From contig JAFASF010000099.1 of the NCBI GenBank assembly GCA_019244745.1, forward strand, positions 1-43,525: a stretch of 43,525 nt of DNA, read 5' to 3'. The stretch comes from Solirubrobacterales bacterium (GTDB lineage Bacteria > Actinomycetota > Thermoleophilia > Solirubrobacterales > Solirubrobacteraceae). The translations under genes and the position numbers were made by a program. Below are positions 7,494-36,649 of this stretch, piece after piece (the first letter of the stretch is position 1; every line of letters begins with the position of its first letter). The notes under the pieces were generated by a model. It saw nothing but the letters and a program-made list of their open reading frames with translations, had not been told where the DNA came from and made no database searches.

Positions 7494-7496
7494 GGG

Positions 7497-13602: not shown

Positions 13603-13619
13603 GGAGGAGGAGGTCATAC

Positions 13620-14807: not shown

Positions 14808-14827
14808 TCAGCTGACGCGATGGTCGC

Positions 14828-14859
14828 CGGCGGTGGGCGCGTCAGTGCGCCCACCGCCG
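14828..14859 (+). terminator. 13-bp hairpin between binding-protein and permease genes
   Basis: CGGCGGTGGGCGC (14828-14840) is the exact complement of GCGCCCACCGCCG (14847-14859) around the loop GTCAGT. No T-tract follows and the operon continues 32 bp later. It is therefore more likely an RNA-stability or partial-termination element that raises binding protein relative to permease than a full stop. Confidence 0.75.
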
Positions 14860-14891
14860 CGTGACGTTAGGGTTGCGCACACCCGCGGCTT

Positions 14892-15809: not shown

Positions 15810-15810
15810 G

Positions 15811-17244: not shown

Positions 17245-18035
17245 TGTCGCTGTTGGAGCTGGACCGGGTATCCCTCTCGTTCGGGGGCCTGCGGGCTTTG
17301 AGCGAGCTCGAGCTGCACGTTGACCAGCGCGAGATCGTGAGCTTGATCGGCCCGAATGGTGCCGGAAAGACGACGGTCTTCAACGTCCTCACCGGTGTCT
17401 ATGACCCCACCGACGGCGATATTCGCTTCGCCGGCGAGAGCATCGCCCACAAGGCTTCTCACCAGGTCACCCGCCGAGGAATGGCACGTACGTTCCAGAG
17501 CCTCCGGCTGTTTCTCAACATGTCGGTCATTGAGAACGTAATGGCAGCGACCTACGGCGGCACCAAGGCGATGCCGTGGGAGTCGATCCTGCGCTTCCCG
17601 CGCGCCCGCCGCGAGGAGCGCGAAGTGCGCGAGCTGGCCGAGGAGGCGCTGTCGTTCTTCGGCCAGCGCCTCGCCGGCTACCGCTGGGACCAGCCTGCCT
17701 ACTCGCTGTCGTACGCCAACCGCCGCCGCCTCGAGATCGCGCGCGCACTGGCGACCAAGCCACAACTGCTGCTTCTCGACGAGCCGGCCGCGGGGATGAA
17801 CCCGAGCGAGACGCACGAGATCACCGAATTGATCGGCCGCCTGCGGGACGAGCGCGAGGTGGGAATCCTGGTGATCGAGCACGACATGCACGTGGTCGAG
17901 GGCGTCTCTGACCGGGTGGTCGCGCTTGACCACGGTGTGAAGATCGCCGAGGGCAGTTTCGACGAGGTCGCCAACCACCCCAGCGTGGTCGAGGCGTATC
18001 TGGGTCGCGATCCCGAGGCGCTGGCGGAGGCCTGA
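17244..18035 (+). CDS. livG: LivG-type ABC importer ATPase
   Basis: 263 residues from GTG 17244, which overlaps the livM stop; the open frame extends further upstream but only inside livM. Walker A GPNGAGKTT (about 36-44), the LivG-type signature LSYANRRRLEIARAL, Walker B LLLLDEPAAGMNPSE and the switch histidine in ILVIEHDMHVV. It hydrolyses ATP at the cytoplasmic face of the LivHM channel together with LivF. The next gene's ATG overlaps its stop (TGATG). Confidence 0.95.
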   Translation: MSLLELDRVSLSFGGLRALSELELHVDQREIVSLIGPNGAGKTTVFNVLTGVYDPTDGDIRFAGESIAHKASHQVTRRGMARTFQSLRLFLNMSVIENVMAATYGGTKAMPWESILRFPRARREEREVRELAEEALSFFGQRLAGYRWDQPAYSLSYANRRRLEIARALATKPQLLLLDEPAAGMNPSETHEITELIGRLRDEREVGILVIEHDMHVVEGVSDRVVALDHGVKIAEGSFDEVANHPSVVEAYLGRDPEALAEA

Positions 18036-18769
18036 TGAACGCCGCCGATGGACAGCTCGCCAAGCCGCTGCTCTCACTCGACAAGGTCACGACCTACTAC
18101 GCCCAGATGCGCATCCTCGAGGGAATCTCGCTCCAGGTTGGCGCCGGCGAGCTCGTGTGCCTGCTCGGCGGCAACGCCTCAGGCAAGTCGACCACCCTGA
18201 AGACGATCCTGGGCCTGGTGCGCCCCCGGGCGGGGAGGGTCCTGTTCGCCGGCGAGGACGTCACCGCCTGGCCGGTCCCGCAGCGGATCGCCAACGGGGT
18301 CGCGATCGTTCCCGAGAACCGGCGCCTGTTCGGAACGATGACGGTGCGCGAGAACCTCGAGCTGGGCGCCGTGCTGCGGGACGCCGGCACGTACGACGCT
18401 GACTTCGAGCGGGTGTACACGCTGTTCCCGCGCCTGCACGAGCGCCGCGACCAGCTCGCCGGCACCCTGTCGGGCGGCGAGCAGCAGATGGTCGCCATGG
18501 GGCGCGCGCTGATGTCGCGCCCTCGGCTGCTGCTGATGGACGAACCCTCGATGGGCCTCTCTCCGGCGCTCGTCCAGCAGAACTTCCGCATCATCAAAGA
18601 AGTGCACGAATCGGGCGTCGCCGTGCTGATGGTCGAGCAGAACGCGACGATGGCGCTGTCGATCGCCGACCGCGGGTACGTGCTCTCGACCGGCGAGATC
18701 GTGCTGTCTGGCTCGGCCGCCGAGCTGCTGCGAAGCGAGGATCTGAAGCGCGCGTATCTGGGACGGTGA
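18035..18769 (+). CDS. livF: LivF-type ABC importer ATPase
   Basis: 244 residues. KVTTYYAQMRILEGISL is the LivF-type beginning. Walker A reads GGNASGKST instead of the usual GxNGAGKTT, still functional in form. The signature is LSGGEQQMVAMGRAL, Walker B LLLMDEPSMGLSP and the switch His is replaced by Gln in LMVEQNA, as is normal for LivF. Completes the importer. A hairpin immediately after the stop probably ends the transcript. Confidence 0.95.
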   Translation: MNAADGQLAKPLLSLDKVTTYYAQMRILEGISLQVGAGELVCLLGGNASGKSTTLKTILGLVRPRAGRVLFAGEDVTAWPVPQRIANGVAIVPENRRLFGTMTVRENLELGAVLRDAGTYDADFERVYTLFPRLHERRDQLAGTLSGGEQQMVAMGRALMSRPRLLLMDEPSMGLSPALVQQNFRIIKEVHESGVAVLMVEQNATMALSIADRGYVLSTGEIVLSGSAAELLRSEDLKRAYLGR

Positions 18770-18774
18770 TTCGT

Positions 18775-23922: not shown

Positions 23923-24852
23923 GTGACGAGCCCGGAGCGTCTTAGCGTCCGCGTCGGCGTCGGCTGGAATCCGTTTCGCCGGGACGCCGTCGCCGGGGCG
24001 CTGTTCTGGGACACGGTCGAGCTGCTCGAGGAGTTTCGCTACGACTCCCTTTGGTTGAGCGACATCGCCACGCAGCCGTCGGTCGCGCCGCTGCCGATGC
24101 TCGCCGCGGTGGCCGCCAGGACCGAGCGGCTCAAGCTCGGGACGAGCGTGCTCGCCGTGCCGGCGCGCAACCCGGTTCTGATGACCAAGGAGCTCGCGAC
24201 GATCGATGTGCTCTCCGCCGGGCGTCTGTTCCCCGCCTTCGGCATCGGGATCGCGCTGCCGCGCGAGCTCGCCGCGCTCGGGATCCCGCGCGAAGAGCGC
24301 GCGCCCCGGCTCGAGGAGGCCATACACATCATCCGGGCGCTCTGGACGGGCGAGCCGATCACCTACCACGGCCGATTCAGCACGCTCGAGAACGTCACCC
24401 TAATCCCGCGCCCGACCCGCACCAAGATCGAGCCCTGGCTCGGCGGCTCGACCCCGGCGGCGGTAAAGCGCATCGGCCGCATCGCCGACGGCTGGCTCGC
24501 GTCAGGCGTCGATCCGCCGCGGTTCGCCAGTCTGCTCGCGATCCTCAAGGCCGAGGCGGCGGCGGCCGGCCGGACCGTCCCCGAAGACCACTTCGGCACG
24601 ATCGTGTTCGTGGCCGAGTCAGACGACCAGGCCGACGCCCTGATGGCGGCCCGCCAGCGGGCGGGCCGCCCCACGCCACCCGACACGATCGCCGTCGGCG
24701 TCGCGGGAACCCGCTCGCTGCTCGAGCGCTTCCGCGAGGCCGGGGCCACGAAGTTCGTCTTCTACCTCCTGCCAGACGACCCGCGACCGCTGCTGCGGGC
24801 GCTAAAAGCCGAGGTCGTCGACCCCTTCGAGGCGGAGCCGGTTTACGCCTGA
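23923..24852 (+). CDS. LLM-class (luciferase-like) oxidoreductase, probably F420- or flavin-dependent
   Basis: 309 residues from GTG 23923, 10 bp after the sigma factor stop. The bacterial luciferase TIM barrel is recognisable by VRVGVGWNPFRRDAV, DSLWLSDIA, TERLKLGTSVLAVPARNPVLMTKELATIDVLSAGR and FGIGIALPRELAALG. The segment IEPWLGGSTPAAVKRIGRIADGWL lies near residue 170. In actinobacteria such proteins usually use F420, but FMN cannot be excluded. It converges on the SDR gene with a 10-bp overlap of coding ends. Substrate unknown. Confidence 0.88.
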   Translation: MTSPERLSVRVGVGWNPFRRDAVAGALFWDTVELLEEFRYDSLWLSDIATQPSVAPLPMLAAVAARTERLKLGTSVLAVPARNPVLMTKELATIDVLSAGRLFPAFGIGIALPRELAALGIPREERAPRLEEAIHIIRALWTGEPITYHGRFSTLENVTLIPRPTRTKIEPWLGGSTPAAVKRIGRIADGWLASGVDPPRFASLLAILKAEAAAAGRTVPEDHFGTIVFVAESDDQADALMAARQRAGRPTPPDTIAVGVAGTRSLLERFREAGATKFVFYLLPDDPRPLLRALKAEVVDPFEAEPVYA

Positions 24853-25583
24853 ATCCCGCCGCCGTCGATGACGAGCGCCTGGCCGTTGATCGCGACCGCC
24901 GCCGGGGAGGCGAGGAACACGACCGCGTCGGCGACTTCGCCGGGGTCGAGCAACCGGTGCAGCGGCGACTTGTCCGCCAGCGCCTGCTCGCTCTCGGCCT
25001 CCGTACGTCGGGTGACCTCGACGATCCGGGCGATCGCCCGATCCGTCAGCTCCGTGCGCACGTAGGCCGGGCAGACCGCGTTGGCGCGCACTCCGGTGCC
25101 CGCGACCTCGCTCGCCACCGCGCGCATCAGTCCCACGGCGGCGTGCTTGGAGGCGGTGTAGGCGCTGGTGTATGGCGCGCCGATCCGACCGGCGACCGAG
25201 GCGACGGTGATCATCGCGCCGGCGCCGCGCTCGCGCATCCGGGGCAGCACCGCGCGCATGCACAGGAACGGTCCGGTGACGTTCGTATCGAAGTGCCGGC
25301 CCCAAGAGGCGAGCGTCGTCCGGGCGAGCGGCGCGCTCTCGGCAAACCCGGCGTTGTTGACGAGCACATCGACGTCCCCCAGCCGCCCGAACGTCTCGAT
25401 CACCGCCTGCTCATCGGTGACATCGCACCGCTCGGTCCGCACCGCCTGCTCGGCCTGCAGACGTGACAGTGCCTCCCGGTCGCGCCCGAGCGCCACCACA
25501 TCGTCCCCCAGCGCCGCGAACCGCTCGACGATCGCGCGCCCGATGCCCTTGGCGCCGCCGGTGACGACGACCGTCCGGCTCAC
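24843..25583 (-). CDS. Short-chain dehydrogenase/reductase
   Basis: 246 residues from GTG 25581-25583, overlapping the upstream LLM stop by 4 bp. NAD(P) motif TGGAKGIG (8-15), NNAG, the catalytic Ser in ITVASVAGRIG and YTASK (Tyr and Lys), then the C-terminal INGQALVIDGGG, as in FabG-like enzymes. Expected: oxidation of a 3-hydroxyacyl-CoA or other alcohol. As last gene of the minus-strand group containing enoyl-CoA hydratase and acyl-CoA dehydrogenase, it could supply the 3-hydroxyacyl-CoA dehydrogenase step of the aromatic-CoA pathway (inference). Confidence 0.9.
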   Translation of the reverse strand: MSRTVVVTGGAKGIGRAIVERFAALGDDVVALGRDREALSRLQAEQAVRTERCDVTDEQAVIETFGRLGDVDVLVNNAGFAESAPLARTTLASWGRHFDTNVTGPFLCMRAVLPRMRERGAGAMITVASVAGRIGAPYTSAYTASKHAAVGLMRAVASEVAGTGVRANAVCPAYVRTELTDRAIARIVEVTRRTEAESEQALADKSPLHRLLDPGEVADAVVFLASPAAVAINGQALVIDGGGIQA

Positions 25584-26503
25584 CCTGCGATCACCGGCGC
25601 CAGCCGCTCCATCTGTGCCAGCCGCTCGGGGTAGCGCCCGACCAGGAACTGGAGCGCCACGTGCTGCACCCCGATGTCCTCGAACCGCGACAATGCCTCG
25701 GCGACCTGTTCGGGCGTCCCCCGCAGCCGGTCCCGCTCCTGCTCGGCCGGCTCGTCGGTGACCTCGACCGACAGGCAGCAGTTGAGCCCGACCGCGTGCG
25801 GATCGCGTCCCGCCTCGCCGGCCGTCTCCCGCACGCGTTCGTACCGCGACGCCAGCTCCTCCGGCGTCACGCGCGCGAAGTACGGAAACCATGCGTCTCC
25901 GTAAATTCCCGCGCGGCGCTGCGCCCCCCGGCTCTCGCCGCCGCACCACACGGGGATCGGGGAGTCGAACGCCTTGGGGTAGAACGCGATGTCGTCGTAG
26001 GAGTACTCCTCGCCGGAGAAGGAGCAGTGATCCTCTCCGAACAGGTTGCGCGCCACCCGAAGCTGCTCCTCGCCGACCGCCGCCCGCCGCGGGAAGACGT
26101 CCGAGCGGCCCAGGGCCGCGAACTCCTCGGCCATCCACCCGATTCCGACCCCGAGGATGAACCGCCCCTCCGACAGCCAGTCGATGGTCGAGGCGACCTT
26201 CGCCCAGTGCACGGGGTCGCGGTACGTGGTGACGAGCACGCTCACCCCGAGCCGGATCCGCTCCGTGGCGCCGGCCAGGAACGCGAGCGCGGTCATCGAC
26301 TCGAGAAACGGCTTCTCCGGGGGGACGATGAACGAACCCGACCAGCTATAGGCGTAGTCGCTCTCGATCTTCCACGGGATCACGATCCGGTCCGCGGCCC
26401 ACACGGTGGTGAATCCCAGTCGCTCCGCGGTCTCCGCGGCGTGGCGCAGTCCGGCCCGGGTGCACGCCGCTCCTGACACCGGAAGGAAGACGCCAAAGTC
26501 CAT
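25580..26503 (-). CDS. LLM-class F420/flavin-dependent oxidoreductase
   Basis: 307 residues. MDFGVFLPVSGAACTRAGLRHAAETAERLGFTTVWAADRIVIP is the typical start of an F420-dependent LLM protein (TIGR03619-like style). It is followed by TERIRLGVSVLVTTYRDPVHWAKVASTIDWLSEGRFILGVGIGWMAEEFAALG and PIPVWCGGES. Translation is coupled to the SDR (GTGA overlap). 46 bp separate it from the acyl-CoA dehydrogenase upstream, so it probably belongs to the same transcript. Function in the pathway unknown; a ring or enone reduction is conceivable. Confidence 0.9.
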   Translation of the reverse strand: MDFGVFLPVSGAACTRAGLRHAAETAERLGFTTVWAADRIVIPWKIESDYAYSWSGSFIVPPEKPFLESMTALAFLAGATERIRLGVSVLVTTYRDPVHWAKVASTIDWLSEGRFILGVGIGWMAEEFAALGRSDVFPRRAAVGEEQLRVARNLFGEDHCSFSGEEYSYDDIAFYPKAFDSPIPVWCGGESRGAQRRAGIYGDAWFPYFARVTPEELASRYERVRETAGEAGRDPHAVGLNCCLSVEVTDEPAEQERDRLRGTPEQVAEALSRFEDIGVQHVALQFLVGRYPERLAQMERLAPVIAG

Positions 26504-26549: not shown

Positions 26550-27665
26550 TCAAGGCGCGGTGCGGAACAGAGACCGCGCGATGATCTCGCGCTGGATCTC
26601 AGAGGCACCCTCGTAGATGCGTGGCGCGCGAACCTCGCGGTAGAGATGCTCGAGCGGATGGCCGTGCTCGAGCCCTCGCGCGCCGTGCACCTGGACCGCG
26701 AAGTCGACCGCTTCCTGGGCGGTCTCGGTCGCCATCAGCTTGGCCATTGCCGCGAGCGCCGGGTCGTGCTCGGCGGCGTCGTGGGCGGCCGCGGCCTGGT
26801 GCACGAGCAGCCGGGCTGCCGTGACGCGGGTGACGACGTCGGCGAGTTTGTGGGATAGGGATTGGTGGTTACGCAGCGGCTGCCCGAACGTGGTGCGCCA
26901 GCGCAACCACGTGGTGGCGTGTTCGATCGCTGCCTGGGCCATCCCGATGACCCCGGCGCCGACGCTTGGCCGGAACAGGTCGAGCGTGCGCATCGCCACC
27001 CGGAAGCCGGCGCCGGGCTCGCCGAGCGTCTGCTCGCGCGCGACCGGGACCGCGTCGAAGTGAAGCGATCCGATCGCGTGGGGCGCGAGCAGCTGACGGT
27101 GCTCGCCGGTGAGGCCCTCACTCTCGCCCGGCACCGCGAACGCGGTCAAGCCGCGGGATCCCTCCCCCGAGGTACGCGCGAACACCGTGTAGATGTCGGC
27201 TTCGGGCGCGTTCGAGATCCACAGCTTCTCTCCGGTCAGGCGGTAGCCGTCGCCATCGGGCTCGGCCTTGAGCGAGATCGCCGACACGTCGGAGCCCGCT
27301 TCCGGTTCCGTGAGCGCGAACGCCGCCACCGCGGTTCCGGTGGCCACGCGCGGGATCCATTCATCCCTGATCGGCGGCGACCCGGCCTGGAGGATCGGGT
27401 AGGCGCCGAGCCCCTGGACCGCGAACGCGGTCTCCGCGTCGGTGCACGCCGTCGCCAGCGCCTCGCGGATCAGGCACAGCTCGATGGCGGAGGTTGTGGG
27501 GAACAGGTGGGTCAGCAAGCCCTGCTGTGCGAGCGCGCGCACCAGCGGGCGGTTGACCCGCCCGGGCTGCCCCTCCTCGGCGATCGGCCGCAGCGTCTGC
27601 GCCGCCAGCTTCCGCGTGCGATCGTAGAGCGCGCGGTGCTCCTCGCTGAGGCGATCGTTGATCAC
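26550..27665 (-). CDS. Acyl-CoA dehydrogenase
   Basis: 371 residues from GTG 27663-27665, which overlaps the Rid-protein stop by 4 bp; the 14 extra upstream codons lie inside that gene. FAD/substrate motifs: AAFALTEPEAGSDVSAI (about 117-133), GEKLWISNAPEADIYTVFAR and VHGARGLEHGHPLEHLYREVRAPRIYEGASEIQREI near the end. The Glu of IYEGASEIQ is the usual catalytic base position. It would introduce a double bond alpha,beta to a CoA thioester, passing electrons to ETF. Placed with an enoyl-CoA hydratase and beside a CoA ligase, it belongs to a beta-oxidation-like branch of the aromatic pathway. Confidence 0.93.
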   Translation of the reverse strand: MINDRLSEEHRALYDRTRKLAAQTLRPIAEEGQPGRVNRPLVRALAQQGLLTHLFPTTSAIELCLIREALATACTDAETAFAVQGLGAYPILQAGSPPIRDEWIPRVATGTAVAAFALTEPEAGSDVSAISLKAEPDGDGYRLTGEKLWISNAPEADIYTVFARTSGEGSRGLTAFAVPGESEGLTGEHRQLLAPHAIGSLHFDAVPVAREQTLGEPGAGFRVAMRTLDLFRPSVGAGVIGMAQAAIEHATTWLRWRTTFGQPLRNHQSLSHKLADVVTRVTAARLLVHQAAAAHDAAEHDPALAAMAKLMATETAQEAVDFAVQVHGARGLEHGHPLEHLYREVRAPRIYEGASEIQREIIARSLFRTAP

Positions 27666-28033
27666 GGCTGGATGACCGCGGTGCCCATCAGCTCGACCAG
27701 CGCCCACGGCTCGAACAGCTCCGTGACCCCGAACAACCCCATCGCGGGGTAGTGGGTCCCGAAGCGCTCGCGCCAGACCTGACCCAGCTCGGACAACGAG
27801 GCCTTATACGCGGCGACATCGGTCACGAACACCTGTAGAGAAACCAGGTCGCCCACAACACCACCTGCCGCATCCAGCGCCACGATGAGGTTCGACGCTG
27901 CCCCATCGAACTGCTCCACGATCGTCTCGCCCGCGCCGATCTGCCCGGCGAGGTAGACCGTGTTGCCGGCGACGACCGCGTGAGAGAAGCCGCGGGGGCG
28001 GGGCAACTCCGGCGGGTTGACGATCCGATTCAC
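27662..28033 (-). CDS. Rid-family (YjgF/YER057c) protein lacking the deaminase arginine
   Basis: 123 residues if it starts at GTG 28031-28033, which forms a GTGA overlap with the hydratase like its neighbours; ATG 28045 would add four residues. FSHAVVAGNTVYLAGQIG, then VALDAAGGVVGDLVSLQVFVTDVAAY and YPAMGLFGVTELFEPWALVELMGTAVI follow the RidA trimer fold. In true RidA imine deaminases the P-A-R-S motif carries the essential Arg (Arg105); here the sequence is PAMGL, with Met98 at that place. It therefore probably belongs to a Rid subfamily without the classical imine deaminase site. In an aminoaryl-CoA pathway a Rid protein could act on an enamine or imine intermediate, but by other residues. 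Confidence 0.88.
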   Translation of the reverse strand: MNRIVNPPELPRPRGFSHAVVAGNTVYLAGQIGAGETIVEQFDGAASNLIVALDAAGGVVGDLVSLQVFVTDVAAYKASLSELGQVWRERFGTHYPAMGLFGVTELFEPWALVELMGTAVIQP

Positions 28034-28848
28034 CGGCCGCTCCATGCCGGTTGGCGCCCCTCGCTCCAGGCTTTGTAGAACTCGGCGAAGTCATCTGACT
28101 TCATCAGCAGCGCCTGCGTGAGCGCATCGTGCTCGATCGAGCCACCCAGGTCCATGTCGAGCTCGCGGGTCAGCGCGACCTTGGTGGCTGAGTAGGCGAA
28201 CGCCGGCCCCGTGGCGAGCCGTTTCGCGAGCGTCGTGGCCCTGGTCAGCAGTGCCGCATCCGGGAGGACCTCCGAGGCCAGGCCGATCTCGAGCGCGCGC
28301 TGAGGGGAGATCTTGTCTCCGAGCATCAGCAGCTCGGTCGCCCGGCCCAATCCCACGATCCGCGGCAGCAGGTACGCCGAGCCCATGTCCGCGCCTGAGA
28401 GCCCCACGCGCGTGAACAGGAATGCGAACGACGCCGATTCGGACAGCAGCCGGAAGTCGCTCGCGAGCGCGATCACCGAGCCGGCCCCGGCGGCGACGCC
28501 ATTGACCGCCGCGATCACCGGCAGCGGACATTCGCGCAGCGCCTTGACCACCGCCCCGGTCATCCTCGTGAACGCGAGCAGCTCCGCCGCCTCGAGCTTG
28601 ACCAGCTCGCCGATGATCTCCTCGACGTCGCCGCCCGAGCAGAAGCCGCGGCCCCGTCCGGTGATGATCAGAACGCGCGCGTCGCCCGGCGTGTGGGTAA
28701 GCTGCCCGATCAGGTCGCGGAGGTCCCCGTAGACCTCGAACGTGAGCGCGCCCAGCTTGTCGGGCCGGTTGAAGGCAATGGTTGCGACACCGTCGCGGAC
28801 ATCGAAGTCGAAGTGCCAGTTCACGCCTGACCCGACGATACTTGACAT
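28030..28848 (-). CDS. Enoyl-CoA hydratase/isomerase (crotonase) family protein
   Basis: 272 residues from ATG 28846-28848 (CCGGAG upstream). Crotonase fold: GVATIAFNRPDKLGALTFEVYGDL, oxyanion loop GRGFCSGGDVEE, and VNGVAAGAGSVIALASDFRL. The two catalytic Glu residues of classical enoyl-CoA hydratase are not obvious: the sequence has GAGSVIAL and GLSGADMGSAYLLPRIVG, in which an Asp occupies the second site. The reaction could therefore be isomerisation, ring hydrolysis or C-C lysis instead of simple hydration. First gene of the minus-strand operon, only 44 bp from the divergent CoA ligase. Confidence 0.9.
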   Translation of the reverse strand: MSSIVGSGVNWHFDFDVRDGVATIAFNRPDKLGALTFEVYGDLRDLIGQLTHTPGDARVLIITGRGRGFCSGGDVEEIIGELVKLEAAELLAFTRMTGAVVKALRECPLPVIAAVNGVAAGAGSVIALASDFRLLSESASFAFLFTRVGLSGADMGSAYLLPRIVGLGRATELLMLGDKISPQRALEIGLASEVLPDAALLTRATTLAKRLATGPAFAYSATKVALTRELDMDLGGSIEHDALTQALLMKSDDFAEFYKAWSEGRQPAWSGR

Positions 28849-28892
28849 AGAACTCCGGAGCAATGTGAACTATTATTTCGACGGAGGCGAAG
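28849..28892. promoter_or_regulatory. Divergent promoter region of the two aromatic-CoA operons
   Basis: Only 44 bp separate the hydratase ATG (minus) from the ligase TTG (plus), so both promoters must overlap here or reach into the genes. An AT-rich patch, GTGAACTATTATTTCG (28865-28880), stands out, beside the 8-bp palindrome CTCCGGAG (28853-28860). A regulator bound here would control both directions; the PaaX-type protein at 34369 is the obvious candidate (inference). Confidence 0.5.
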
Positions 28893-30245
28893 TTGGCCGG
28901 AAGCCCGTACTGGAATCCTAAGACCGAGACCCTCCCGCGCGAACGACTCGAGGCGCTTCAACTGGTCAAGCTCCGACGCCACTGCGAGTGGGCGGCGGCA
29001 CGGAGTCCCTGGTATCGCCGGCGCTTTGCCGAGGAGGGGTTCGAGCCAGGGCAGCTGAGGTCGCTGGCCGACTTGCGCCGCGTGCCGATGCTGACGCGCG
29101 AGGACTGGATGGCCTCCCAGGACGTTCGCCCGCCCTATGGGGAGGTTCCGACGGTCGGGGGGGAGGGCGCGATCCGGGTCCATACCACGTCGGGCACGAC
29201 CGGGCGCGGCCCGCTGCGCGCACTCGATTCGCGCAAGGACTGGGCGTGGATCGCGGAGATGTGGTCCTACGCGGTCTGGGGGTGCGGCGTGCGGCCCACC
29301 GACACCGCGTACATCGCGTTCGGGTACGGGTCGTTCATCGGGTTCTGGGGACTCCACTACGCGATGGAGAAGGTGGGGGTGCTGAACGTCCCCGGGGGTG
29401 CCCAACCGACCGACGCGCGGGTGGCCCAGATACTGGATTTCGGCGCCACGGTCGTCGCCTCGACGCCGACCTACGCGCTGCGTATGGCCCAGGAAGCCGA
29501 CGCGCGCGGCCTGGATCTGCGCGCCTCCGCGGTGCAGCGCCTGATCCTGTCCGGCGAGCCCGCCGGCTCGATCCCGCAGACCAAGGCGCTGATCGAGGAG
29601 CAGTGGGGCGCCAGGGCGTTCGACACCGCGGGCATGACCGAGATCGGGACGATCATGGTGTTCGAGTGCGAGCACCAGCCGGGTGGGACGCACATCATCG
29701 AGGACAACATGATCGAGGAGGTGATCGACCCGGACTCGCTCGAGGCAGTGCCGTACGGCGAGCGCGGGGAGCGGGTCGTGACCTCGTTCGGGCGCGGCAC
29801 GATTCCCCTGATCCGCTACCGGACCGGAGACGTGGTGTGCCGGGTACCGGCCTCGCGATGCCCGTGCGGGCGGGGGTTTGACATCTACGAGGGCGGGATC
29901 CAGGGCCGGGTGGACGACATGAAGATCGTCCGCGGGACGAACGTGTACCCGCGGGCGATCGAGGCGATCGTCCGCGAGTTCCGCGACGTGGACGAGTTCC
30001 AGACCGTGATCACGCACGAGGGAATTCGCGACGAGATCACGCTGCGGGTGGAGATGAAGCCCGAGTGGTCGGTGGATGGTTGGGACGCCTTCTCGGCGGA
30101 TCTCCACCGGCGGCTCGCGCACTCCCACGAGGGCCTGAACTTCCGGATCGAGCGCGCGGAGGCGGGTGAGCTGCCACGGTTCGAGCTGAAGGCCAAGCGG
30201 ACGGCCGATCTTCGGGAGCAGCCGACGGCGGTGGTGTTCCCGTGA
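28893..30245 (+). CDS. Phenylacetate-CoA ligase-type (PaaK) aryl-CoA ligase
   Basis: 450 residues from TTG 28893 with GGAGG 5-6 bases upstream. Adenylate-forming enzyme of the PaaK branch: YRRRFAEEGFEPGQLRSLADL, P-loop HTTSGTTGRGPLRALD, FDTAGMTEIG, IRYRTGDVV, CGRGFDIYEGGIQGRVDDMKIVRGTNVYP and C-terminal LPRFELKAKR. It activates an aryl acid with ATP and CoA in the cytoplasm. With a 2-aminobenzoyl-CoA monooxygenase/reductase-type gene two genes later, anthranilate or a related benzoate is the likeliest substrate. The last ~9 residues extend past the usual LPR...KAKR end. The IS110 element begins about 10 bp after the stop. Confidence 0.9.
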   Translation: MAGSPYWNPKTETLPRERLEALQLVKLRRHCEWAAARSPWYRRRFAEEGFEPGQLRSLADLRRVPMLTREDWMASQDVRPPYGEVPTVGGEGAIRVHTTSGTTGRGPLRALDSRKDWAWIAEMWSYAVWGCGVRPTDTAYIAFGYGSFIGFWGLHYAMEKVGVLNVPGGAQPTDARVAQILDFGATVVASTPTYALRMAQEADARGLDLRASAVQRLILSGEPAGSIPQTKALIEEQWGARAFDTAGMTEIGTIMVFECEHQPGGTHIIEDNMIEEVIDPDSLEAVPYGERGERVVTSFGRGTIPLIRYRTGDVVCRVPASRCPCGRGFDIYEGGIQGRVDDMKIVRGTNVYPRAIEAIVREFRDVDEFQTVITHEGIRDEITLRVEMKPEWSVDGWDAFSADLHRRLAHSHEGLNFRIERAEAGELPRFELKAKRTADLREQPTAVVFP

Positions 30246-30256
30246 GACGTCGTGTG

Positions 30257-31609
30257 TCAACCCCCGAGCGCGTTAGCGGATGTCGGCTTGCCGTCAAGCG
30301 CGTCGCGTTCGGCCGGTTGGGCCGCCCTGCGGGTGACGGTGGCGCCGAGCATCTGCTGGGTGGCGGCGAGGTCGGAGCGGGGCCCCGACGAGCTGGGGAT
30401 GGTGACGGTGCAGTGCTGTTGGAGAGCGCGGTGGCGGGCCGGGTCATACAGGGTGCGGTCCTGCCAGCAGCGCCAAACGATGCGGCACCAGGCGCGTCCG
30501 AGGGTGCGGGTTGCGCGGGGGTGGTCGTGACCTTGGGCGATCGCGCGGGCGTAGTGGTCGGCGGCCCAGGGGTGCCAGTGGCGGGTGCTGTCGGCCAGCG
30601 TGCAGAACGCGTCACGGAGCCGCTTGTTGCACGCCCAGCGGAAGCAGGCGATCTTGCGTTTGCCGGACTCGACCGCGACGGGTGCCTGGCCGGCGTCGCC
30701 GGCGAGCGTGTCGCGGGTGGGGTAGCGGGCGCGGCAGTCGCCCATCTCCGCGAGCATGGTGGCGGCGGTGATCATCGCCTTGGGGTCGCGGAACAGCGAA
30801 AGGAAGATCTCGCCGTCGGGATGCTCGCGCACTGCGGTCGCGATCTGCCGCTCGAGCGTCTTGATCTGCGCCACGAGCGGCTTCAGCGTGGCGAGGAGCG
30901 CGAGCACCAGCTGCCGCCGCATCGCGATCTCCTGCTCGCCGGCGCGACCCTCGGGAGCTTCGCGAAGCCGGGCCAGCAGTTCGCGGGCGGGCTTGCGGCC
31001 GCTGTATCCCTGGCGGCGCAGAAACGAGGCGAGGCGCTGTTCTCCGAGCGCTTTGGCGTCGATCGGGCTCGGATATTTCTCCAGGAAGGCGAGCGCGATC
31101 GGGCTGTGCAGGCGGGCGAACATCTTGACGGCGCCGGGCCAGAAGCGCTCCAGCTCGGCGCGCAGCTGGTTGGTCAGCGCCACCCGAGTCTGCACGAGAT
31201 CCTCGCGCCCGCGGGTCAGCGCCCTGAGCGCCTTGGTCTGATCGCTGTCGGGCTCCAGAACCCGAAAGCGGTGGTGGTCGGTGCGGGCGAGCTCGCACAA
31301 AACGAACGCGTCGAAGCGGTCGGACTTGCCGCCCGAGACCCGGAACCGGGGGCGGGCAGCCACCACCTGGTTGGGATGCAGCGCGATGACCCGCAGCCCC
31401 GCGTCCAGCAGCCGCTCGACCAGCACCCCATCCGGGCGCTCGATCGCCACCAGCTCCACACCCAGGCGCACCAGCGTCCGGCACAGCGAACGCAACCCCG
31501 CCTCCTCATGCGCGAACGACGCCGCCAACAGCTCCTCGCCGGCCGCGTCGCAGACCAGCACCTCGTGCTTCTCGGACGCCCAGTCGACGCCCGCATACCT
31601 ACTTCCCAT
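30257..31609 (-). CDS. IS110-family transposase (DEDD recombinase)
   Basis: 450 residues. N-terminal DEDD RuvC-like domain: GVDWASEKHEV with Asp9, VAIERPDG with Glu57, and GGKSDRFDAFVL with Asp97 and Asp100. Middle segment: VQTRVALTNQLRAELERFWPGA. C-terminal Tnp_20 domain: LAEMGDCRARYPTRDTLAGDAGQAPVAVESGKRK (Ser expected to be the nucleophile), then RWACNKRLRDAF and DRTLYDPARH. All key positions are present and there is no frameshift, so it is probably active. The ~55-residue tail beyond DPARH is long for the family. The stop codon lies within a few bases of the element's end. Members use a structured RNA from the element's non-coding end to pair donor and target DNA. Confidence 0.95.
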   Translation of the reverse strand: MGSRYAGVDWASEKHEVLVCDAAGEELLAASFAHEEAGLRSLCRTLVRLGVELVAIERPDGVLVERLLDAGLRVIALHPNQVVAARPRFRVSGGKSDRFDAFVLCELARTDHHRFRVLEPDSDQTKALRALTRGREDLVQTRVALTNQLRAELERFWPGAVKMFARLHSPIALAFLEKYPSPIDAKALGEQRLASFLRRQGYSGRKPARELLARLREAPEGRAGEQEIAMRRQLVLALLATLKPLVAQIKTLERQIATAVREHPDGEIFLSLFRDPKAMITAATMLAEMGDCRARYPTRDTLAGDAGQAPVAVESGKRKIACFRWACNKRLRDAFCTLADSTRHWHPWAADHYARAIAQGHDHPRATRTLGRAWCRIVWRCWQDRTLYDPARHRALQQHCTVTIPSSSGPRSDLAATQQMLGATVTRRAAQPAERDALDGKPTSANALGG

Positions 31610-31830
31610 CTGAACTCCTCTAACGCTGGGACTTCACAGCGCCCCGACCACGAGGTACCGTTGCGGGCGCTCATTGACTGGCCCTCAACGGGGCTACGTC
31701 GTGTTGCCGCTTGCGGCACCTCACCCCGCCGGGAGGGGCAGGTCTCACGCGGGCCCTCACACGGGCAAGCGACACAGGCCCTCCCCCCGCGGCGGTCGAG
31801 GCCGACACGACCACATCGGCCGCGTCAACC
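31610..31830 (-). ncRNA. Candidate IS110 bridge RNA / structured non-coding end
   Basis: 220 bases upstream of the transposase with no open frame of note and at least six self-complementary stems: AGCGCCC/GGGCGCT (31638-31644 with 31665-31671, a 20-base loop); GCCC/GGGC (31681-31684 with 31691-31694); TGCCG-cttg-CGGCA (31705-31718); CCCC/GGGG (31724-31727 with 31735-31738); GCCC/GGGC (31753-31756 with 31763-31766); and a nested CGCGGC/GCCGCG (31788-31793 with 31819-31824) enclosing GGTCG/CGACC. IS110-group elements such as IS621 encode their bridge RNA (about 180 nt, with two guide loops) in this position and orientation. Position, size and loops fit; guide loops have not been assigned. It could instead be leader sequence of the 74-aa gene. 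Confidence 0.5.
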
Positions 31831-31842
31831 GAAGGATGACCA

Positions 31843-32067
31843 ATGAGCGACACGAGCACGCGGACGACCCGCGACCTGCTCGGCAACGAGCTCACGCCCG
31901 CCGAGGCGCGACTGCTGGCGGTGTATGAAGAGCTGAAGGCGCTCTGTGCCTCCGAGGATTTGCCGCCCAACGCGGCGGCTGGGGCGCGGGCGGCGCTGGC
32001 GCAGATGCACAACGTGGTGAGCGGGCTGGCGCTCGAGTACGAGCATCTGAGCGACCTCGGGGTGTGA
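31843..32067 (+). CDS. 74-residue protein of unknown function preceding the monooxygenase/reductase
   Basis: 74 residues from ATG 31843, with AAGGATG 6 bases upstream. Not recognised. Sequence is mostly helical: [50 protein letters not shown], ending EHLSDLGV, and with a single Cys. There is no signal peptide or membrane segment. Its stop lies 4 bp before the TTG of the monooxygenase/reductase, which strongly suggests coupled expression and a job as partner or accessory to that enzyme (inference). GC content and codon use match the flanking genes, so it is unlikely to belong to the IS. Confidence 0.8.
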
Positions 32068-32071
32068 CGCT

Positions 32072-34372
32072 TTGAAGATCGCCGTCGTCGGTGGGGGGCC
32101 CGGGGGTCTCTACTTCTCCATCCTCATGAGGAAGGTGAGGCCCGACTGGGAGATCACCGTGTTCGAGCGCAACGCGCCAATCGACGCGTTCGGGTTCGGG
32201 GTCGTGTTCTCCGACGAGACGCTGACCGTGTTCGAGCACGCGGATCCGGAGACGTACTGGTCGATCGCCGAGCGGTTCGCGCGCTGGAGCGATATCGATA
32301 TCGAGTTTCGTGGGACCGTGACGACTTCGGGCGGCCACGGATTCGCGGCTCTGGGACGACGGGAGCTGCTGGGGATCTTGCAGGAGCGGGCTCTGGGGCT
32401 GGGAGTGGACATTCACTTCCAGTGCGAGGCGCCTTCGGTGGCTGAGTTGGCGTGGGCCGATGTAGTCGTCGGGGCGGACGGGGCCTCTTCCGCGGTACGG
32501 GGTGAGTTGGCGCGCGACTTCGTGCCATCACTGGACCGCCGCCACTGCCGCTACATGTGGCTGGGCACCGACCTCATGTTCGACTCGTTCAAGTTCTTCA
32601 TCGTCGAGACGGATGAGGGAGTGTTCCAGGCGCACGCGTATCCGTACGACGAGCGGATGAGCACATTCATCGTCGAGACGCACGAGGCGGTGTGGCGGCG
32701 CGCCGGGTTGGATTCGCTGGCACCGGGGCCGCTACCCCCGGGGGTGAGCGATATGGCCTCGGTCGAGTTCTGCTCCCGGTTGTTCGCGGATGCTCTTGAC
32801 GGGCATTCGCTCGTGGCGAACAACTCCAAGTGGATCAACTTCGTGACCGTGCGCAACCGGCGGTGGTGCGTCGAGAACGTTGTGTTGCTGGGGGACGCGG
32901 CGCACACGGCGCACTTCTCGATCGGCTCAGGCACGAAGATGGCGATGGAGGACGCCACCGCACTGGCGTGGGCGTTTAAGTGGCACGGTTCGGATGTCGG
33001 GCCGGCGACGCGGGCTTATGAGAGTGAGCGGCGACCGATCGTCGAGAGCACGCAGCGGGCGGCGCAGGCCTCGCTCGAGTGGTTTGAGGGGATCGGGCGC
33101 TACGTGGGGCAATCGCGCACCCAGTTCGCGTTCAATCTCTTGACGCGGTCGCGAAGGGTGACGTTCTCGAACCTCCAGATGCGCGACCCCGAGTTCGTCC
33201 GGTCGGTGCACCCCGATCCGCGGCCGCCGATGTTCACGCCGTTCCGGCTCCGCGGGCTCGAGTTTCCGAACCGAGTGGTGGTGTCGGCCATGGACATGTA
33301 CTCCTCGGTCGACGGGACCGCTGGCGACTTTCACCTCGTACACCTGGGCTCGCGGGCGCTCGGCGGAGCCGCGCTGGTGATGACCGAGATGATCTGTGTA
33401 TCGGCGCAGGGGCGGATCACGCCGGGATGCGCGGGGATGTATCGCGCCGAGCACGTCGCGGCGTGGCGGCGGATCGTCTCGTTCGTGCACTCGTACGGCG
33501 GCGGCCTGATCGGGGCGCAGATCGGGCACTCGGGCCGAAAGGGCTCGACCAAGCTCATGTGGGAGGGGATGGACGAGCCTTTGGAATCCGGCAACTGGGA
33601 GGTGATGGGTCCCTCGCCGCTGCGCTACGGGCCGCGCAACCAGGTCCCGCGGGCGATGACGCGGGAGGACATGGATCGGGTGGTGGCGCAGTTCGTGGCG
33701 GCCGTGCGGGGTGCGGTGGCGGCCGGGTTTGACTTCATGGAGCTGCACTGCGCGCACGGATATCTGCTGTCGAGCTTCCTCTCGCCGCTGGCGAACGCGC
33801 GGTCGGATGAATACGGAGGGTCGTTGGCGCGTCGGGCGCGCTTTCCCCTGGAAGTGTTCGATGCCTGCCGGGCGGTTTGGCCCGCCGAGAAGCCGATGAG
33901 CGTGAGGATCTCGGCGACCGACTGGGTCGAGGGCGGATTTGGGCCAGACGACGCGGTTGCCTTCGCCGCGATGCTGCGCGCGCACGGATGCGACATCGTC
34001 GATGTTTCCTCGGGGCAGGTGTCGCCCCTGGAGCGGCCGGCGTTCGGCAGGAGTTTCCAGACCCCGTTCGCGGACCGGATCCGCAACGAAGTCGGGATGC
34101 CGACGATCGCGGTCGGGGCGATCTCCTCGGACGACGACGTCAACACGATCGTCGCGGCGGGGCGGGCGGACCTGTGCGCGCTGGCCCGTCCGCACCTCTA
34201 CGACCCGCATTGGACCCTGCACGCGGCGGCGGAGCAGGGGGTCGACGTGCCGTGGCCGGCGCAGTACCAGGCCGGTTCTCGGAAGCCTCCCTCGGGACGG
34301 GGGGACGAGGTGCGAAAGGAGCTCGAGCGGACGTTCGAGGCGCCGGAGCTCGTGCCCGACGCAAGGCCGTGA
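32072..34372 (+). CDS. Bifunctional flavin monooxygenase/Old Yellow Enzyme, 2-aminobenzoyl-CoA monooxygenase/reductase type
   Basis: 766 residues from TTG 32072. Domain 1 (1-~385): FAD-dependent aromatic hydroxylase, with [18 protein letters not shown], the mid-motif [16 protein letters not shown] and [26 protein letters not shown]. Domain 2 (~388-750): Old Yellow Enzyme barrel with [70 protein letters not shown] and the FMN-binding IAVGAIS. This fusion is that of 2-aminobenzoyl-CoA monooxygenase/reductase (ACMR) of Azoarcus evansii, which hydroxylates and then reduces the ring of anthraniloyl-CoA; salicylyl-CoA 5-hydroxylases with the same fusion are the alternative. The substrate would come from the PaaK-type ligase upstream. 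Its stop overlaps the PaaX start (GTGA). Confidence 0.9.
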
Positions 34373-35199
34373 CGGGCGCGATCGGGGAGCCGTTTCAGCC
34401 TCAGGATCTCGTGATCACCCTGCTCGGCACGTACGTGCGGGGGTTTCATGAAACCGTCTGGTCGGGCGGGCTCGTCGTGCTGCTCGGGGAGTTCGGGTTC
34501 TCGCACGGGGCCGCGCGGGTGGCGCTGACCCGGCTGGTTCGCCGTGGGTTGATCGCGCGCGTGCGCTCGGGGCGGTTAGTGCACTACCGGATCACCGATC
34601 GTGCGGACCGGCTGCTCGCGGAGGGCGATGGGCGGATCTTTACTCTGGGCACGCGCCGTTCAGCCGAGGGCACCTGGACGTTGCTGTGGCATCAGATCCC
34701 CGAGGATCGCCGGCTCGAGCGCTCCCGGCTGGCGAGGCGGCTGCGGTTTCTTGGGTTCGGGTCGATGCAGGACAGCGTGTGGGTCTCGCCGCACGACCAT
34801 TCTCCCGAGGTGTCGCAGCTGCTTTCCGATTTGGGAGTCGCGCAGTACGCGACGATGTTCTCATCTCGGGTGGCGGGGGTTGCAGGCCTGAGGTCTTTGG
34901 TGGGGAGGGCGTGGGATTTGAGCGGGCTGGCGGAACGCTACGACGCGTTCTGCGGGGAGTTCGGGAAGTACGTCTGGCGGGGGCGGCCACGGAGGCTGGA
35001 TGATTTCTCGGCGTTCATGGTCCGCACCCGGGCAGTGCACCTATTCCGCGGGTTTCCGGTTCTCGATCCCGAGCTGCCGGAGGACTTGGCGCCGCTGTCG
35101 GCGCCCCGCGCGCGGGCGGCGGAGATCTTCCACGTGTTGTACGAGGGGCTGGCGGCAGGATCGCGGCGGCACTTCGACCGCGTGACGGCGGCGCGTTGA
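34369..35199 (+). CDS. PaaX-family transcriptional regulator
   Basis: 276 residues from GTG 34369, overlapping the upstream stop by 4 bp. Winged-helix domain: [62 protein letters not shown]. Middle domain: [42 protein letters not shown]-terminal effector part ending [15 protein letters not shown]. PaaX of E. coli represses phenylacetate genes and is released by the aryl-CoA ester. Here an aryl-CoA produced by the ligase at 28893 is the likely inducer. Being within the operon, it would autoregulate. Confidence 0.92.
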
Positions 35200-36356
35200 C
35201 CGTGGCCGCGGACGCGTGCATCGTCGGATGCGGCGAGGCGCGATACACCCGCCATGCGCCCGCCGGCACGAACACCGCGGCTGTGCTCGCCGACGCGGCT
35301 TGGCTCGCGCTCGAGAGCGCGGGGATCGACGCCGGCGCCGTCGACGGCCTGGCAGTCTCCTCGTTCTCGCTCGGACCCGATCACGCCATCGACCTCGCGT
35401 GGCGCCTTGGCGTTCACCTGCGCTGGCTGATGGAGGACACCAACGGGGGGGCGAGCGCGATCAACATGCTCCAGCACGCGGGGCGTGCTGTGCAGGCGGG
35501 TGACGCGACTACGGTCCTGGTCCTGGCGGGCGATCATCTGCCGGCGGCGGCGTTTCGCACCCTCGTCGAGGAGTACAACCGCGCCACGCGCGACCATCTG
35601 GCGCCACTTCCGTTCGGTGGGCCCAATTCGTTGTTTGCCATGCTGACCCAACGGCACGCCCGCGCATACGGACTCGGCCGCTCCGACTACGCGGCGCTGG
35701 TCATCGCCCAGCGGCAGTGGGCGGCGCACAACCCCGGCGCGGTGTACCGCGAGCCCTTGACACTGGAGGAATACCTCGCCGCGCCGATCGTGTCCGACCC
35801 GCTGTGCATCTACGACTGCGTGCCGGTGGTGACGGGCGGCGATGCGATCGTCGTGCGCGCGCGCGACCATCTCTCGGGGTCCCGGAGGCCGCCGGTATTG
35901 GTGCGCGCGCTCCGGCTGACCTTCAACCCAGACGACCAGCAGGGCGACGGGCTGCGCACCGGTCTGTCGGTGCTCGCCGGGGAGCTGTGGGCGGAGGCCG
36001 GCGCCGGCCCGCGCGACATGGACGTGACGATGGTCTACGACGACTACCCGGCGATGGCGCTGGTCCAGCTCACGGATCTCGGCTACCTCGGCGAGCGGGA
36101 GCTGCGCGGGTTCATCGCGGATGAGCTCGCGTCGCGACGGCTGCCCGTCAACACCTCGGGCGGCCAGCTGTCCGCGGGTCAGGCGGGAGCTGCGGGCGGA
36201 CTCCATGGTGTGGTCGAGGCGGTGCGGCAGCTCCGCGGCGAGGCGGGGGGCCGGCAGGTGCCCGGCGCCCGCCGAGCGCTGGTCGCGGGCTATGGCATGG
36301 TCGTCTACCGGTATGGAGCGTGCGCCGGCGCGGCGGTGTTGGAGCGCGCGCGGTGA
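35196..36356 (+). CDS. Thiolase-fold protein without catalytic Cys/His (Ltp/aldolase-like)
   Basis: 386 residues from TTG 35196 (TTGA overlap with the paaX-like stop); GTG 35202 is an alternative. Thiolase superfamily architecture: AVDGLAVSSFSLGPDHAID, VQAGDATTVLVLAGDH, VYDDYPAMALVQLTDLGYLGE, NTSGGQLSAGQAGAAGGLHG. But the nucleophile Cys position reads EDTNGGAS (81-87), the histidine position reads SAGQAG with Gln for His, and the C-terminal CxGGG motif is YRYGACAGA. Conventional thiolysis is therefore unlikely. SCP-x/Ltp proteins lacking these residues and paired with a DUF35 partner include Ltp2, a retro-aldolase in steroid degradation. The next gene is exactly such a DUF35 protein, overlapping by 4 bp. 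Confidence 0.87.
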   Translation: MTVAADACIVGCGEARYTRHAPAGTNTAAVLADAAWLALESAGIDAGAVDGLAVSSFSLGPDHAIDLAWRLGVHLRWLMEDTNGGASAINMLQHAGRAVQAGDATTVLVLAGDHLPAAAFRTLVEEYNRATRDHLAPLPFGGPNSLFAMLTQRHARAYGLGRSDYAALVIAQRQWAAHNPGAVYREPLTLEEYLAAPIVSDPLCIYDCVPVVTGGDAIVVRARDHLSGSRRPPVLVRALRLTFNPDDQQGDGLRTGLSVLAGELWAEAGAGPRDMDVTMVYDDYPAMALVQLTDLGYLGERELRGFIADELASRRLPVNTSGGQLSAGQAGAAGGLHGVVEAVRQLRGEAGGRQVPGARRALVAGYGMVVYRYGACAGAAVLERAR

Positions 36357-36649
36357 GCGAGCTCGAGATCCAGCAATGCCTTCGCTGCAGCGCGGCGTGG
36401 TTTCCGGACCGCCTTCGCTGCCCGGGATGCGGCGCGCGCAAATGGCAGCGCGTGCCGGCGGGGGAGGGAACCGTCGAGCAGGACACTTGGGTCCACCGAC
36501 CGCCGGCGCCCGACGGCGCACCGGTCAGGCTGGGTTCGATAAGGCTCGACGCGGGGCCGATCGTGATCGCGCGCCTTCAGGAGGATGTCGGCACCGGGCG
36601 GCGCGTCCGGTTGGATTCCGGTGCCGACGGAGTCGTCCGGGCACGTTGA
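36353..36649 (+). CDS. DUF35 OB-fold protein with rubredoxin-like zinc ribbon
   Basis: 98 residues from GTG 36353 (GTGA overlap). CLRCSAAWFPDRLRCPGCG (about 9-27) is a four-cysteine zinc ribbon. The rest (GEGTVEQDTWVHRPPAP, VRLGSIRLDAGPIVIARLQE) is an OB-fold barrel. DUF35 proteins form tight complexes with thiolase-fold enzymes and help bind the CoA thioester, as in ChsH2-Ltp2 and archaeal HMG-CoA synthase assemblies. It almost certainly partners the preceding protein. Confidence 0.92.
   Translation: MSELEIQQCLRCSAAWFPDRLRCPGCGARKWQRVPAGEGTVEQDTWVHRPPAPDGAPVRLGSIRLDAGPIVIARLQEDVGTGRRVRLDSGADGVVRAR

What the first reader, a model, noticed from the sequence alone, without database searches (positions are those of the whole stretch)
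28030..36649. A 2-aminobenzoyl-CoA-type aerobic aromatic pathway with its own PaaX regulator in an actinobacterium
Divergent operons combine a PaaK-type ligase, an ACMR-type monooxygenase/OYE fusion, a crotonase, a Rid protein, an acyl-CoA dehydrogenase, a thiolase-fold/DUF35 pair and a PaaX regulator. ACMR was characterised in the proteobacterium Azoarcus evansii as part of anthranilate breakdown through CoA thioesters. The set here is distinct: PaaK-type instead of benzoate-CoA-ligase-type ligase, a 74-aa unknown gene, and a probable aldolase in place of a thiolase. The combination may be an undescribed variant in which the ring nitrogen or a ring C-C bond is handled differently.
Basis: partly seen in the sequence, partly recalled or inferred. 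Interest (0 to 1): 0.75.

Follow-up and report, generated by a model that had tools for sequence, protein, structure and literature searches.

The report
Anthranilate breakdown cluster with swapped ligase
A soil actinobacterium carries a gene cluster that most likely breaks down anthranilate (a product of tryptophan) as a coenzyme A ester, a route already known in other bacteria, but with a different type of starter enzyme and a small extra gene, and with a jumping gene lodged in the middle.

Summary
It is not new to actinobacteria: the fusion protein is 61% identical to that of Arthrobacter Rue61a plasmid pAL1, whose anthranilate-CoA route and PaaX-like regulators are published, and 66 of 80 named loci hold a PaaX-family gene in the fetched flanks. 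Details change. The 74-aa gene is DUF6052. The thiolase-fold/DUF35 pair is not part of the conserved set (0 of 15 related contigs). An SDR and probably an ABC transporter (12942-18766) belong to it. Neighbours in related genomes point to the substrate: kynureninase in 4 of 15 contigs, an isatin-hydrolase-like gene in 8 of 15; both lead to anthranilate. What differs is a PaaK-family ligase: 6 of 101 genomes at E<=1e-100, all six with the fusion; 0 of 80 named loci. In all six the ligase is followed by DUF6052, here with the IS between them. A 23-bp promoter element occurs once in the genome. No enzyme was tested. Verdict: new variant of a known kind.

The parts
12942..18766 (+). branched-chain-type ABC transporter (substrate-binding protein, two permeases, two ATPases), probable importer of the pathway
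   Evidence: Pfam; 63-88% identical to the transporter that adjoins kynureninase in the PaaK-DUF6052-fusion contig of G023 (L110), ATPases also in G007 (L106)
24843..25580 (-). short-chain dehydrogenase (SDR) of the cluster
   Evidence: translation and 41% identity to the Paracoccus cluster SDR; SDR hits in 7 of 15 related contigs but only 8 of 80 named loci
25580..26503 (-). LLM-class (F420-type) flavin oxidoreductase, optional member
   Evidence: TIGR03619 213.5 bits, cut-off 166.9; in 2 of 15 related contigs, L108 and L109
26550..27665 (-). acyl-CoA dehydrogenase
   Evidence: Pfam; ACAD hits in 52 of 80 named loci
27662..28045 (-). Rid-family protein with Met at the RidA arginine position
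   Evidence: Pfam; Met in 74 of 80 rows, Arg in none
28030..28848 (-). crotonase of the ACMR-linked type (start uncertain: TTG 28863, ATG 28848 or GTG 28824)
   Evidence: NF006107 375.3 bits, cut-off 330; best PDB match 3g64
28844..28866 (+). conserved promoter element, candidate PaaX operator GACATAGAACTCCGGAGCAATGT
   Evidence: only place in the genome with up to 3 mismatches; also upstream of the ligase in L106, L110, L115, not in L117
28893..30245 (+). PaaK-family CoA ligase, probably anthranilate-CoA ligase
   Evidence: PF14535/PF00501; TIGR02155 246.9 bits, below its cut-off 646.3; orthologues 78-81% in five same-genus genomes
30241..31848 (-). IS110-family insertion (transposase 30257-31609 -) splitting the ligase from DUF6052-fusion-PaaX
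   Evidence: NF033542 168.5, cut-off 140; ends by comparison with other copies; no IS at this junction in L106, L110, L115, L117
31843..32067 (+). DUF6052 small protein, two-helix hairpin in the model; its start codon is at the IS end
   Evidence: PF19522; 63-80% identical in five relatives; also after the ligase in G010; model pLDDT 82.4, pTM 0.71
32072..34372 (+). ACMR-type FAD monooxygenase / old-yellow-enzyme fusion
   Evidence: NF006101 over cut-off; 61.4% to the pAL1 protein over 100% of the query; tree
34369..35199 (+). PaaX-family regulator
   Evidence: three PaaX domains over Pfam cut-offs; 66-83% in the same-genus contigs L106 (a fragment at the contig end), L107, L115
35196..36649 (+). 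thiolase-fold + DUF35 pair, downstream, not a conserved member of the pathway
   Evidence: thiolase not hit in 15 related contigs or 80 named loci

Best explanation
The cluster degrades anthranilate, made from tryptophan via kynurenine or, in relatives, probably from isatin, as CoA thioesters. Proposed order: (1) import by the ABC transporter [inferred]. (2) The PaaK-family ligase makes 2-aminobenzoyl-CoA [inferred; it takes the ligase's place in the cluster]. (3) The fusion enzyme hydroxylates (FAD half) and reduces (OYE half) it to 2-amino-5-oxocyclohex-1-ene-carbonyl-CoA [shown for the Azoarcus enzyme as told in PMC3534580 and recalled; here by family membership]. (4) The Rid-like protein, or spontaneous hydrolysis, releases ammonia to give 2,5-dioxocyclohexane-carbonyl-CoA [inferred; a CoA ester of the fitting acid formula C7H8O4 was seen in Rue61a, PMC3534580]. 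(5) Crotonase, acyl-CoA dehydrogenase and SDR open the ring and beta-oxidise the chain [inferred]. (6) PaaX represses the divergent promoter through the 23-bp element until an aryl-CoA, probably anthraniloyl-CoA, releases it [inferred]. DUF6052 follows the ligase gene even where the ligase lies apart from the fusion, so it is more likely a partner of the ligase than of the fusion [inferred]. In this genome IS110 lies between ligase and DUF6052-fusion-PaaX; the ligase stop codon is kept and DUF6052 starts at an ATG at the IS end with AAGGA before it.
For: Fusion over the NF006101 cut-off, 61% to the pAL1 enzyme, in a supported 10-row clade with Ca. Solirubrobacter pratensis, next to the 28-row clade that holds pAL1, in a tree of 41 chosen rows. 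Same protein types as the Paracoccus cluster: fusion, SDR, crotonase, ACAD, Rid, ligase, BCAA-type ABC. Anthranilate-making genes beside the cluster: kynureninase in L106, L110, L118, L119 (4 of 15 contigs; three over the TIGR01814 cut-off, L106 at 239.8 against 246.4) and an isatin-hydrolase-like gene in 8 of 15 (L115 copy 267.7 bits to isatin hydrolase A, next cyclase 109.5). Own genome has a 69% kynureninase on another contig. Kynureninase also near the fusion in Chloroflexi L010 and L015 and Arthrobacter ERGS1:01. Ligase orthologues in 6 of 101 genomes, all with the fusion. Unique conserved promoter element.
Against: No biochemistry on any of these proteins. The ligase scores far below the PaaK equivalog cut-off and its substrate is undetermined. 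The kynureninase of this genome is not in the window, and only distant matches to the isatin hydrolase and TPP enzyme were found in G000. Among the 80 named loci kynureninase and the isatin-hydrolase-like gene are each hit in only 2. The Rid lacks the RidA arginine, so deamination by it is unproven. No conserved thiolase was found. In L109, L111, L112 and L116 neither ligase type was hit. L117 lacks the promoter element. In G010 the ligase lies some 7 kb or more from the fusion. The IS may have silenced the fusion operon.
Confidence: 0.8

Rival explanations
1. Salicylate pathway: the ligase makes salicylyl-CoA and the fusion acts as salicylyl-CoA 5-hydroxylase, as the NCBI family name says.
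For: NF006101 is named bifunctional salicylyl-CoA 5-hydroxylase/oxidoreductase and the protein passes its cut-off.
Against: Of the 38 window ORFs scanned with Pfam none hit a gentisate-type or other benzene-ring-cleaving dioxygenase family (the one dioxygenase hit is tryptophan 2,3-dioxygenase). Kynureninase and isatin-hydrolase-like genes beside the cluster in relatives lead to anthranilate. A Rid gene is found near the fusion in 64 of 80 named loci.
Confidence: 0.07
2. Phenylacetate-type pathway: the ligase is a true PaaK and PaaX a true phenylacetyl-CoA regulator.
For: Both belong to the Paa families in Pfam.
Against: TIGR02155 246.9 against cut-off 646.3 and TIGR02277 161.2 against 264.55; no phenylacetyl-CoA epoxidase family among the 38 window ORFs scanned; the ligase occurs only in genomes with the fusion.
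Confidence: 0.04
3. The cluster is decaying in this genome: IS110 has cut DUF6052-fusion-PaaX off from the shared promoter, so the pathway is silent. (Compatible with the best explanation for the relatives.)
For: IS110 on the opposite strand between ligase and DUF6052; the candidate operator occurs once in the genome, upstream of the IS.
Against: Frames of ligase, DUF6052, fusion and PaaX are open; the ligase stop is kept and DUF6052 starts at an ATG with AAGGA before it, as ORFs do at three other copies; read-through or an IS-borne promoter could express the genes.
Confidence: 0.2
4. One reading: the thiolase-fold/DUF35 pair acts as an Ltp2-type aldolase that replaces the thiolase and cleaves a ring-derived intermediate differently.
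For: It follows PaaX with overlapping ends (35196/35199), and its best PDB matches include lipid-transfer-type proteins.
Against: Thiolase not hit in any of 15 related contigs or 80 named loci by tblastn; no match at E<=1e-60 in 60 relatives.
Confidence: 0.08

Closest known systems
2-aminobenzoyl-CoA gene clusters of Azoarcus evansii, Schuhle et al. 2001 (recalled; text not held)
   Same: Fusion enzyme, CoA ligase, beta-oxidation type enzymes, a 'translation inhibitor' (Rid) protein and an ABC transport component, as recalled
   Different: Here PaaX instead of MarR, PaaK-family instead of benzoate-CoA-ligase-type ligase, DUF6052, divergent arrangement
Anthranilate-CoA genes of Arthrobacter sp. 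Rue61a, plasmid pAL1 (PMC3534580, abstract and passages seen; region)
   Same: Actinobacterial; fusion 61% identical; Rid 45%; PaaX-family genes near it; anthranilate-CoA ligase activity and anthraniloyl-CoA reported in that paper
   Different: pAL1 has an AMP-binding ligase of the other type plus FAH, cupin and thioesterase genes; no crotonase, ACAD or SDR annotated or hit within the 13-kb flanks fetched; PaaX only 27-28% identical
Paracoccus kondratievae plasmid cluster (NZ_CP045074)
   Same: Fusion, SDR, crotonase, ACAD, Rid, ligase, BCAA-type ABC transporter side by side
   Different: MarR regulator, thioesterase, other ligase type, fusion 51% identical
iad loci (indole-3-acetate via isatin to anthranilic acid; PMC9613470, passages seen)
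   Same: Isatin and isatinic acid as sources of anthranilic acid, as proposed for the isatin-hydrolase + TPP pair in relatives
   Different: In the passages seen, iad loci are named in Variovorax, Alcaligenes, Achromobacter and Bradyrhizobium, are MarR-controlled, and are followed only as far as anthranilic acid

Membership tests
ACMR / NF006101 | FAD monooxygenase fused to an OYE domain, over the curated score | tested here: met
   1145.5 bits, cut-off 1078; both Pfam domains
ACMR / NF006101 | activity on 2-aminobenzoyl-CoA | not testable with these tools
   needs an enzyme assay
ACMR / NF006101 | FAD motifs and OYE His-x-x-His-x-Tyr (motifs recalled) | tested here: met
   all four patterns match the window protein; over 97 rows GxGxxG 97, GDAAH 96, HxAHGYLL 92, [DE]YGG[ST] only 16
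Azoarcus-type 2-aminobenzoyl-CoA cluster | crotonase, ACAD, SDR and Rid with the fusion | tested here: met
Azoarcus-type 2-aminobenzoyl-CoA cluster | MarR-type regulator (recalled) | tested here: not met
   PaaX instead; no hit to the Paracoccus MarR in the window
Azoarcus-type 2-aminobenzoyl-CoA cluster | ligase of benzoate-CoA-ligase type (recalled) | tested here: not met
   PaaK family; 74 of 80 named loci hit the other type (three of them only at 33-36% identity), 0 of 80 PaaK
PaaK phenylacetate-CoA ligase (TIGR02155) | score over cut-off | tested here: not met
   246.9 of 646.3
PaaX equivalog (TIGR02277) | score over cut-off | tested here: not met
   161.2 of 264.55; the three PaaX Pfam domains are met
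RidA deaminase | catalytic arginine (recalled) and TIGR00004 cut-off | tested here: not met
   Met where PDB relatives show Arg and in alignment; 34.2 of 106.25 bits
IS110 RNA-guided transposase | NF033542 cut-off | tested here: met
   168.5 of 140
DUF6052 (PF19522) | Pfam gathering score | tested here: met
   27.1 of 25 bits, marginal
Isatin hydrolase (relatives' gene, L115) | closest solved relatives and metal-site residues | tested here: inconclusive
   closest PDB entries are isatin hydrolases, but the residue aligned with Gln219 of the solved enzyme is Thr, with Gln next to it (alignment, residue number from PMC6117287)

The most novel reading that the evidence does not exclude
In this soil genus the CoA pathway for anthranilate has been rebuilt as an indole/tryptophan funnel: isatin hydrolase plus a TPP enzyme that decarboxylates isatinate, together with kynureninase, feed a PaaK-family anthranilate ligase that works with a dedicated small helical protein, DUF6052, encoded right after it in 6 of 6 genomes with this ligase, under a genome-unique operator. 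The ligase family and the small partner would be new for this pathway, and the TPP enzyme might even form anthraniloyl-CoA directly. (Probability raised from a draft value of 0.30 because the check found DUF6052 after the ligase in G010 too.)
Probability: 0.34. Interest if true: 0.55.

Novelty: new variant of a known kind. Interest (0 to 1): 0.36.

Why it matters
It would show that the first enzyme of the aerobic anthranilate-CoA route has been replaced by a ligase of another subfamily in one actinobacterial lineage, and it gives DUF6052 a first functional setting. The isatin-hydrolase/TPP neighbours in relatives suggest how soil actinobacteria might mineralise indole or auxin breakdown products through CoA esters. 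It also cautions on a family name: a protein called a salicylyl-CoA hydroxylase by its model sits, in relatives, beside anthranilate-making genes.

Tried and rejected
Thiolase/DUF35 pair and the Asp/Glu-racemase-family gene at 36676-37464 as pathway members: the thiolase was hit in 0 of 15 related contigs and 0 of 80 named loci, the racemase in 0 of 15; rejected. DUF6052 function by sequence or fold: no PDB sequence hit at E<=1 and no Foldseek match better than E 2.2; nothing learned beyond a helical hairpin. DUF6052 across the phylum with the Pfam model: 1 of 396 genomes, the own one; the model is marginal and I do not know which same-genus genomes were in that sample, so the count says little. 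With a profile of six copies the only hits at E<=1 in the loci scanned were the window (and its duplicate locus L126), L106, L107, L110, L115, L117 and L158. My draft said that G010 lacks DUF6052 beside its ligase; one search showed this wrong, because the ligase end was outside the stretch first looked at (L108). Inverted repeats in the divergent promoter: none with perfect 6-bp arms in the window, L106, L110 or L115; L117 has GC-rich ones and lacks the element. A first regex count of Rid residues was misaligned and was replaced by the alignment. A KynU hit in L111 at 24% overlaps the cysteine-desulfurase-like protein hit and was dropped from the kynureninase count. Chance estimates rest on assumed copy numbers and are not used. 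TDO-family gene at 7494-8219: 137.1 bits against a cut-off of 390.7, 20 kb away, not used as evidence. Papers not held: Schuhle 2001 and the MeqR2 paper; what I say of them is recalled. A search for IS110 with start codon and ribosome binding site listed one paper, PMC11187229 (listing only).


Full report
What is there. On the minus strand from about 28848 leftward: crotonase, Rid, acyl-CoA dehydrogenase, LLM flavoprotein, SDR. The window is contig C51 of a 4.9-Mb genome assembly, 91% complete. The fusion groups with Candidatus Solirubrobacter pratensis and same-family genomes, so the source is probably a member of Solirubrobacterales (inference).

Is the neighbourhood conserved? Of 101 genomes searched (own plus 100 relatives), 18 match the fusion at E<=1e-60. 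I fetched 15 contig stretches from 14 of them, leaving out the own genome and G036, G049 and G074, whose matches cover one domain. The PaaK-family ligase is hit in 5 of 15 contigs. In four of these (L106, L110, L115, L117) it is directly followed by DUF6052 and the fusion, without the IS. In the fifth genome, G010, DUF6052 also follows the ligase (L158), but the fusion lies elsewhere in the same cluster. With the window, that makes 6 of 6 genomes with this ligase. L107 starts at DUF6052 because the contig ends there.

Substrate. Kynureninase lies beside the cluster in L106, L110, L118 and L119; L106 scores 239.8 against the cut-off of 246.4, the other three pass it. A PF04199-type gene is hit in 8 of 15 contigs; the L115 copy is closest to isatin hydrolase, 267.7 bits against 109.5 for the next cyclase, but one metal-site glutamine is replaced by threonine in the alignment with glutamine next to it, so activity is not assured. 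It is paired with a TPP enzyme in five contigs, whose best PDB matches (BbmA, acetolactate synthase, pyruvate oxidase) do not fix its reaction. The pair also occurs in Ornithinimicrobium L023, and the isatin-hydrolase-like gene alone in Pimelobacter L041. In the 80 named loci kynureninase and the isatin-hydrolase-like gene are each hit in 2, so these links are a feature of the window's own group more than of the whole family. Isatin, isatinic acid and anthranilic acid as products are reported for the iad route (PMC9613470, passages), and isatin hydrolase forms isatinate (PMC6117287, passages). The own genome has a 69% kynureninase on C100 but only distant matches to the other two.

Known precedent. 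PMC3534580 (abstract and passages) reports for Arthrobacter Rue61a growth on anthranilate by a CoA route, anthranilate-CoA ligase activity of two expressed ligases, anthraniloyl-CoA and CoA esters that may be hydroxyanthraniloyl-CoA and cyclohexanedione-carboxyl-CoA, and two plasmid regulators related to PaaX. The plasmid region shows a PaaX-family gene as the next gene after the fusion, on the other strand. The window fusion is 61.4% identical to that fusion. So an actinobacterial 2-aminobenzoyl-CoA route with PaaX-type regulators is not new. I recall, without having seen it here, a paper on MeqR2 of that strain responding to anthraniloyl-CoA.

What differs. The ligase is of another subfamily than in the named loci. 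DUF6052 follows it, also where the ligase lies apart from the fusion, which points to the ligase as its partner. PaaX is only 27-31% identical to the pAL1 and Rhodococcus BG43 regulators. The Rid proteins near the fusion have Met at the RidA arginine position in 74 of 80 rows and Arg in none (L108 and L158 are one place counted twice). The crotonase scores 138.7 bits against PaaG (4fzw_C) and 78.0 against PaaF (4fzw_A); its best PDB hit is 3g64, a putative enoyl-CoA hydratase (320.1 bits), and the next ones are entries named only as probable hydratases (146-148 bits). A motif FTxVG[LI]xGxDMG is kept in 70 of 72 crotonase rows, 58 by a stricter pattern; the other two rows, L021 and L157, are distant crotonases. 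In the tree of 41 of the 97 fusion rows, the window and three same-genus rows form a clade (100/99); two same-genus rows (L111, L112) fall in the other large clade with Pimelobacter, so the genus holds more than one version.

Regulation. A 23-bp element at 28844-28866 is conserved upstream of the ligase in the window, L106, L110 and L115, not in L117. It occurs once in the whole genome with up to three mismatches, and in none of 100 shuffles of the window. It is the candidate PaaX site. A shorter 13-base core also has one match in the Streptomyces locus L069, away from the fusion, which I take as chance.

IS110. The element's ends were set by comparing other copies. The right end AAGGATGACCAATGAG occurs four times in the genome, window included. 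In all four an ORF starts in frame at that ATG (74, 351, 178 and 114 aa); at the one other left end seen, an open frame ends at the shared TGA. So the element seems to enter overlapping stop/start junctions and to leave a usable start. It may still cut the fusion operon from its promoter.

Verdict.

Noticed in passing
30241-31848; other ends at G000 C66, C99, C151 (right) and C154 (left): IS110-family element whose right end carries AAGGA-N6-ATG; all four right ends found in the genome sit at the start of an in-frame ORF, suggesting targeting of overlapping stop/start codons. IS900 is a recalled precedent.
   Followed up: partly
7494-8219 with 5453-6502 and 6214-7452: Tryptophan 2,3-dioxygenase-family protein (137 bits, below the TIGR03036 cut-off) next to an ornithine-cyclodeaminase/mu-crystallin-type and a PALP-type gene.
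   Followed up: no
L107, L108, L115, L118, L119, L023: Isatin-hydrolase-like gene paired with a TPP enzyme beside 2-aminobenzoyl-CoA clusters; possible isatin-to-anthranilate module.
   Followed up: partly
27662-28045 and related loci: Rid proteins of these clusters carry Met in place of the RidA arginine in 74 of 80 rows, Arg in none.
   Followed up: yes
18770-21319: Penicillin-amidase family protein (best NCBIfam match PvdQ, below cut-off) directly after the ABC transporter.
   Followed up: no
36676-37464: Asp/Glu racemase-family protein after the DUF35 gene; no hits in the 15 related contigs.
   Followed up: no
L121, L122, L013 and others: A second actinobacterial cluster type with cupin, FAH and thioesterase genes (cupin in 13 of 80 named loci).
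   Followed up: no
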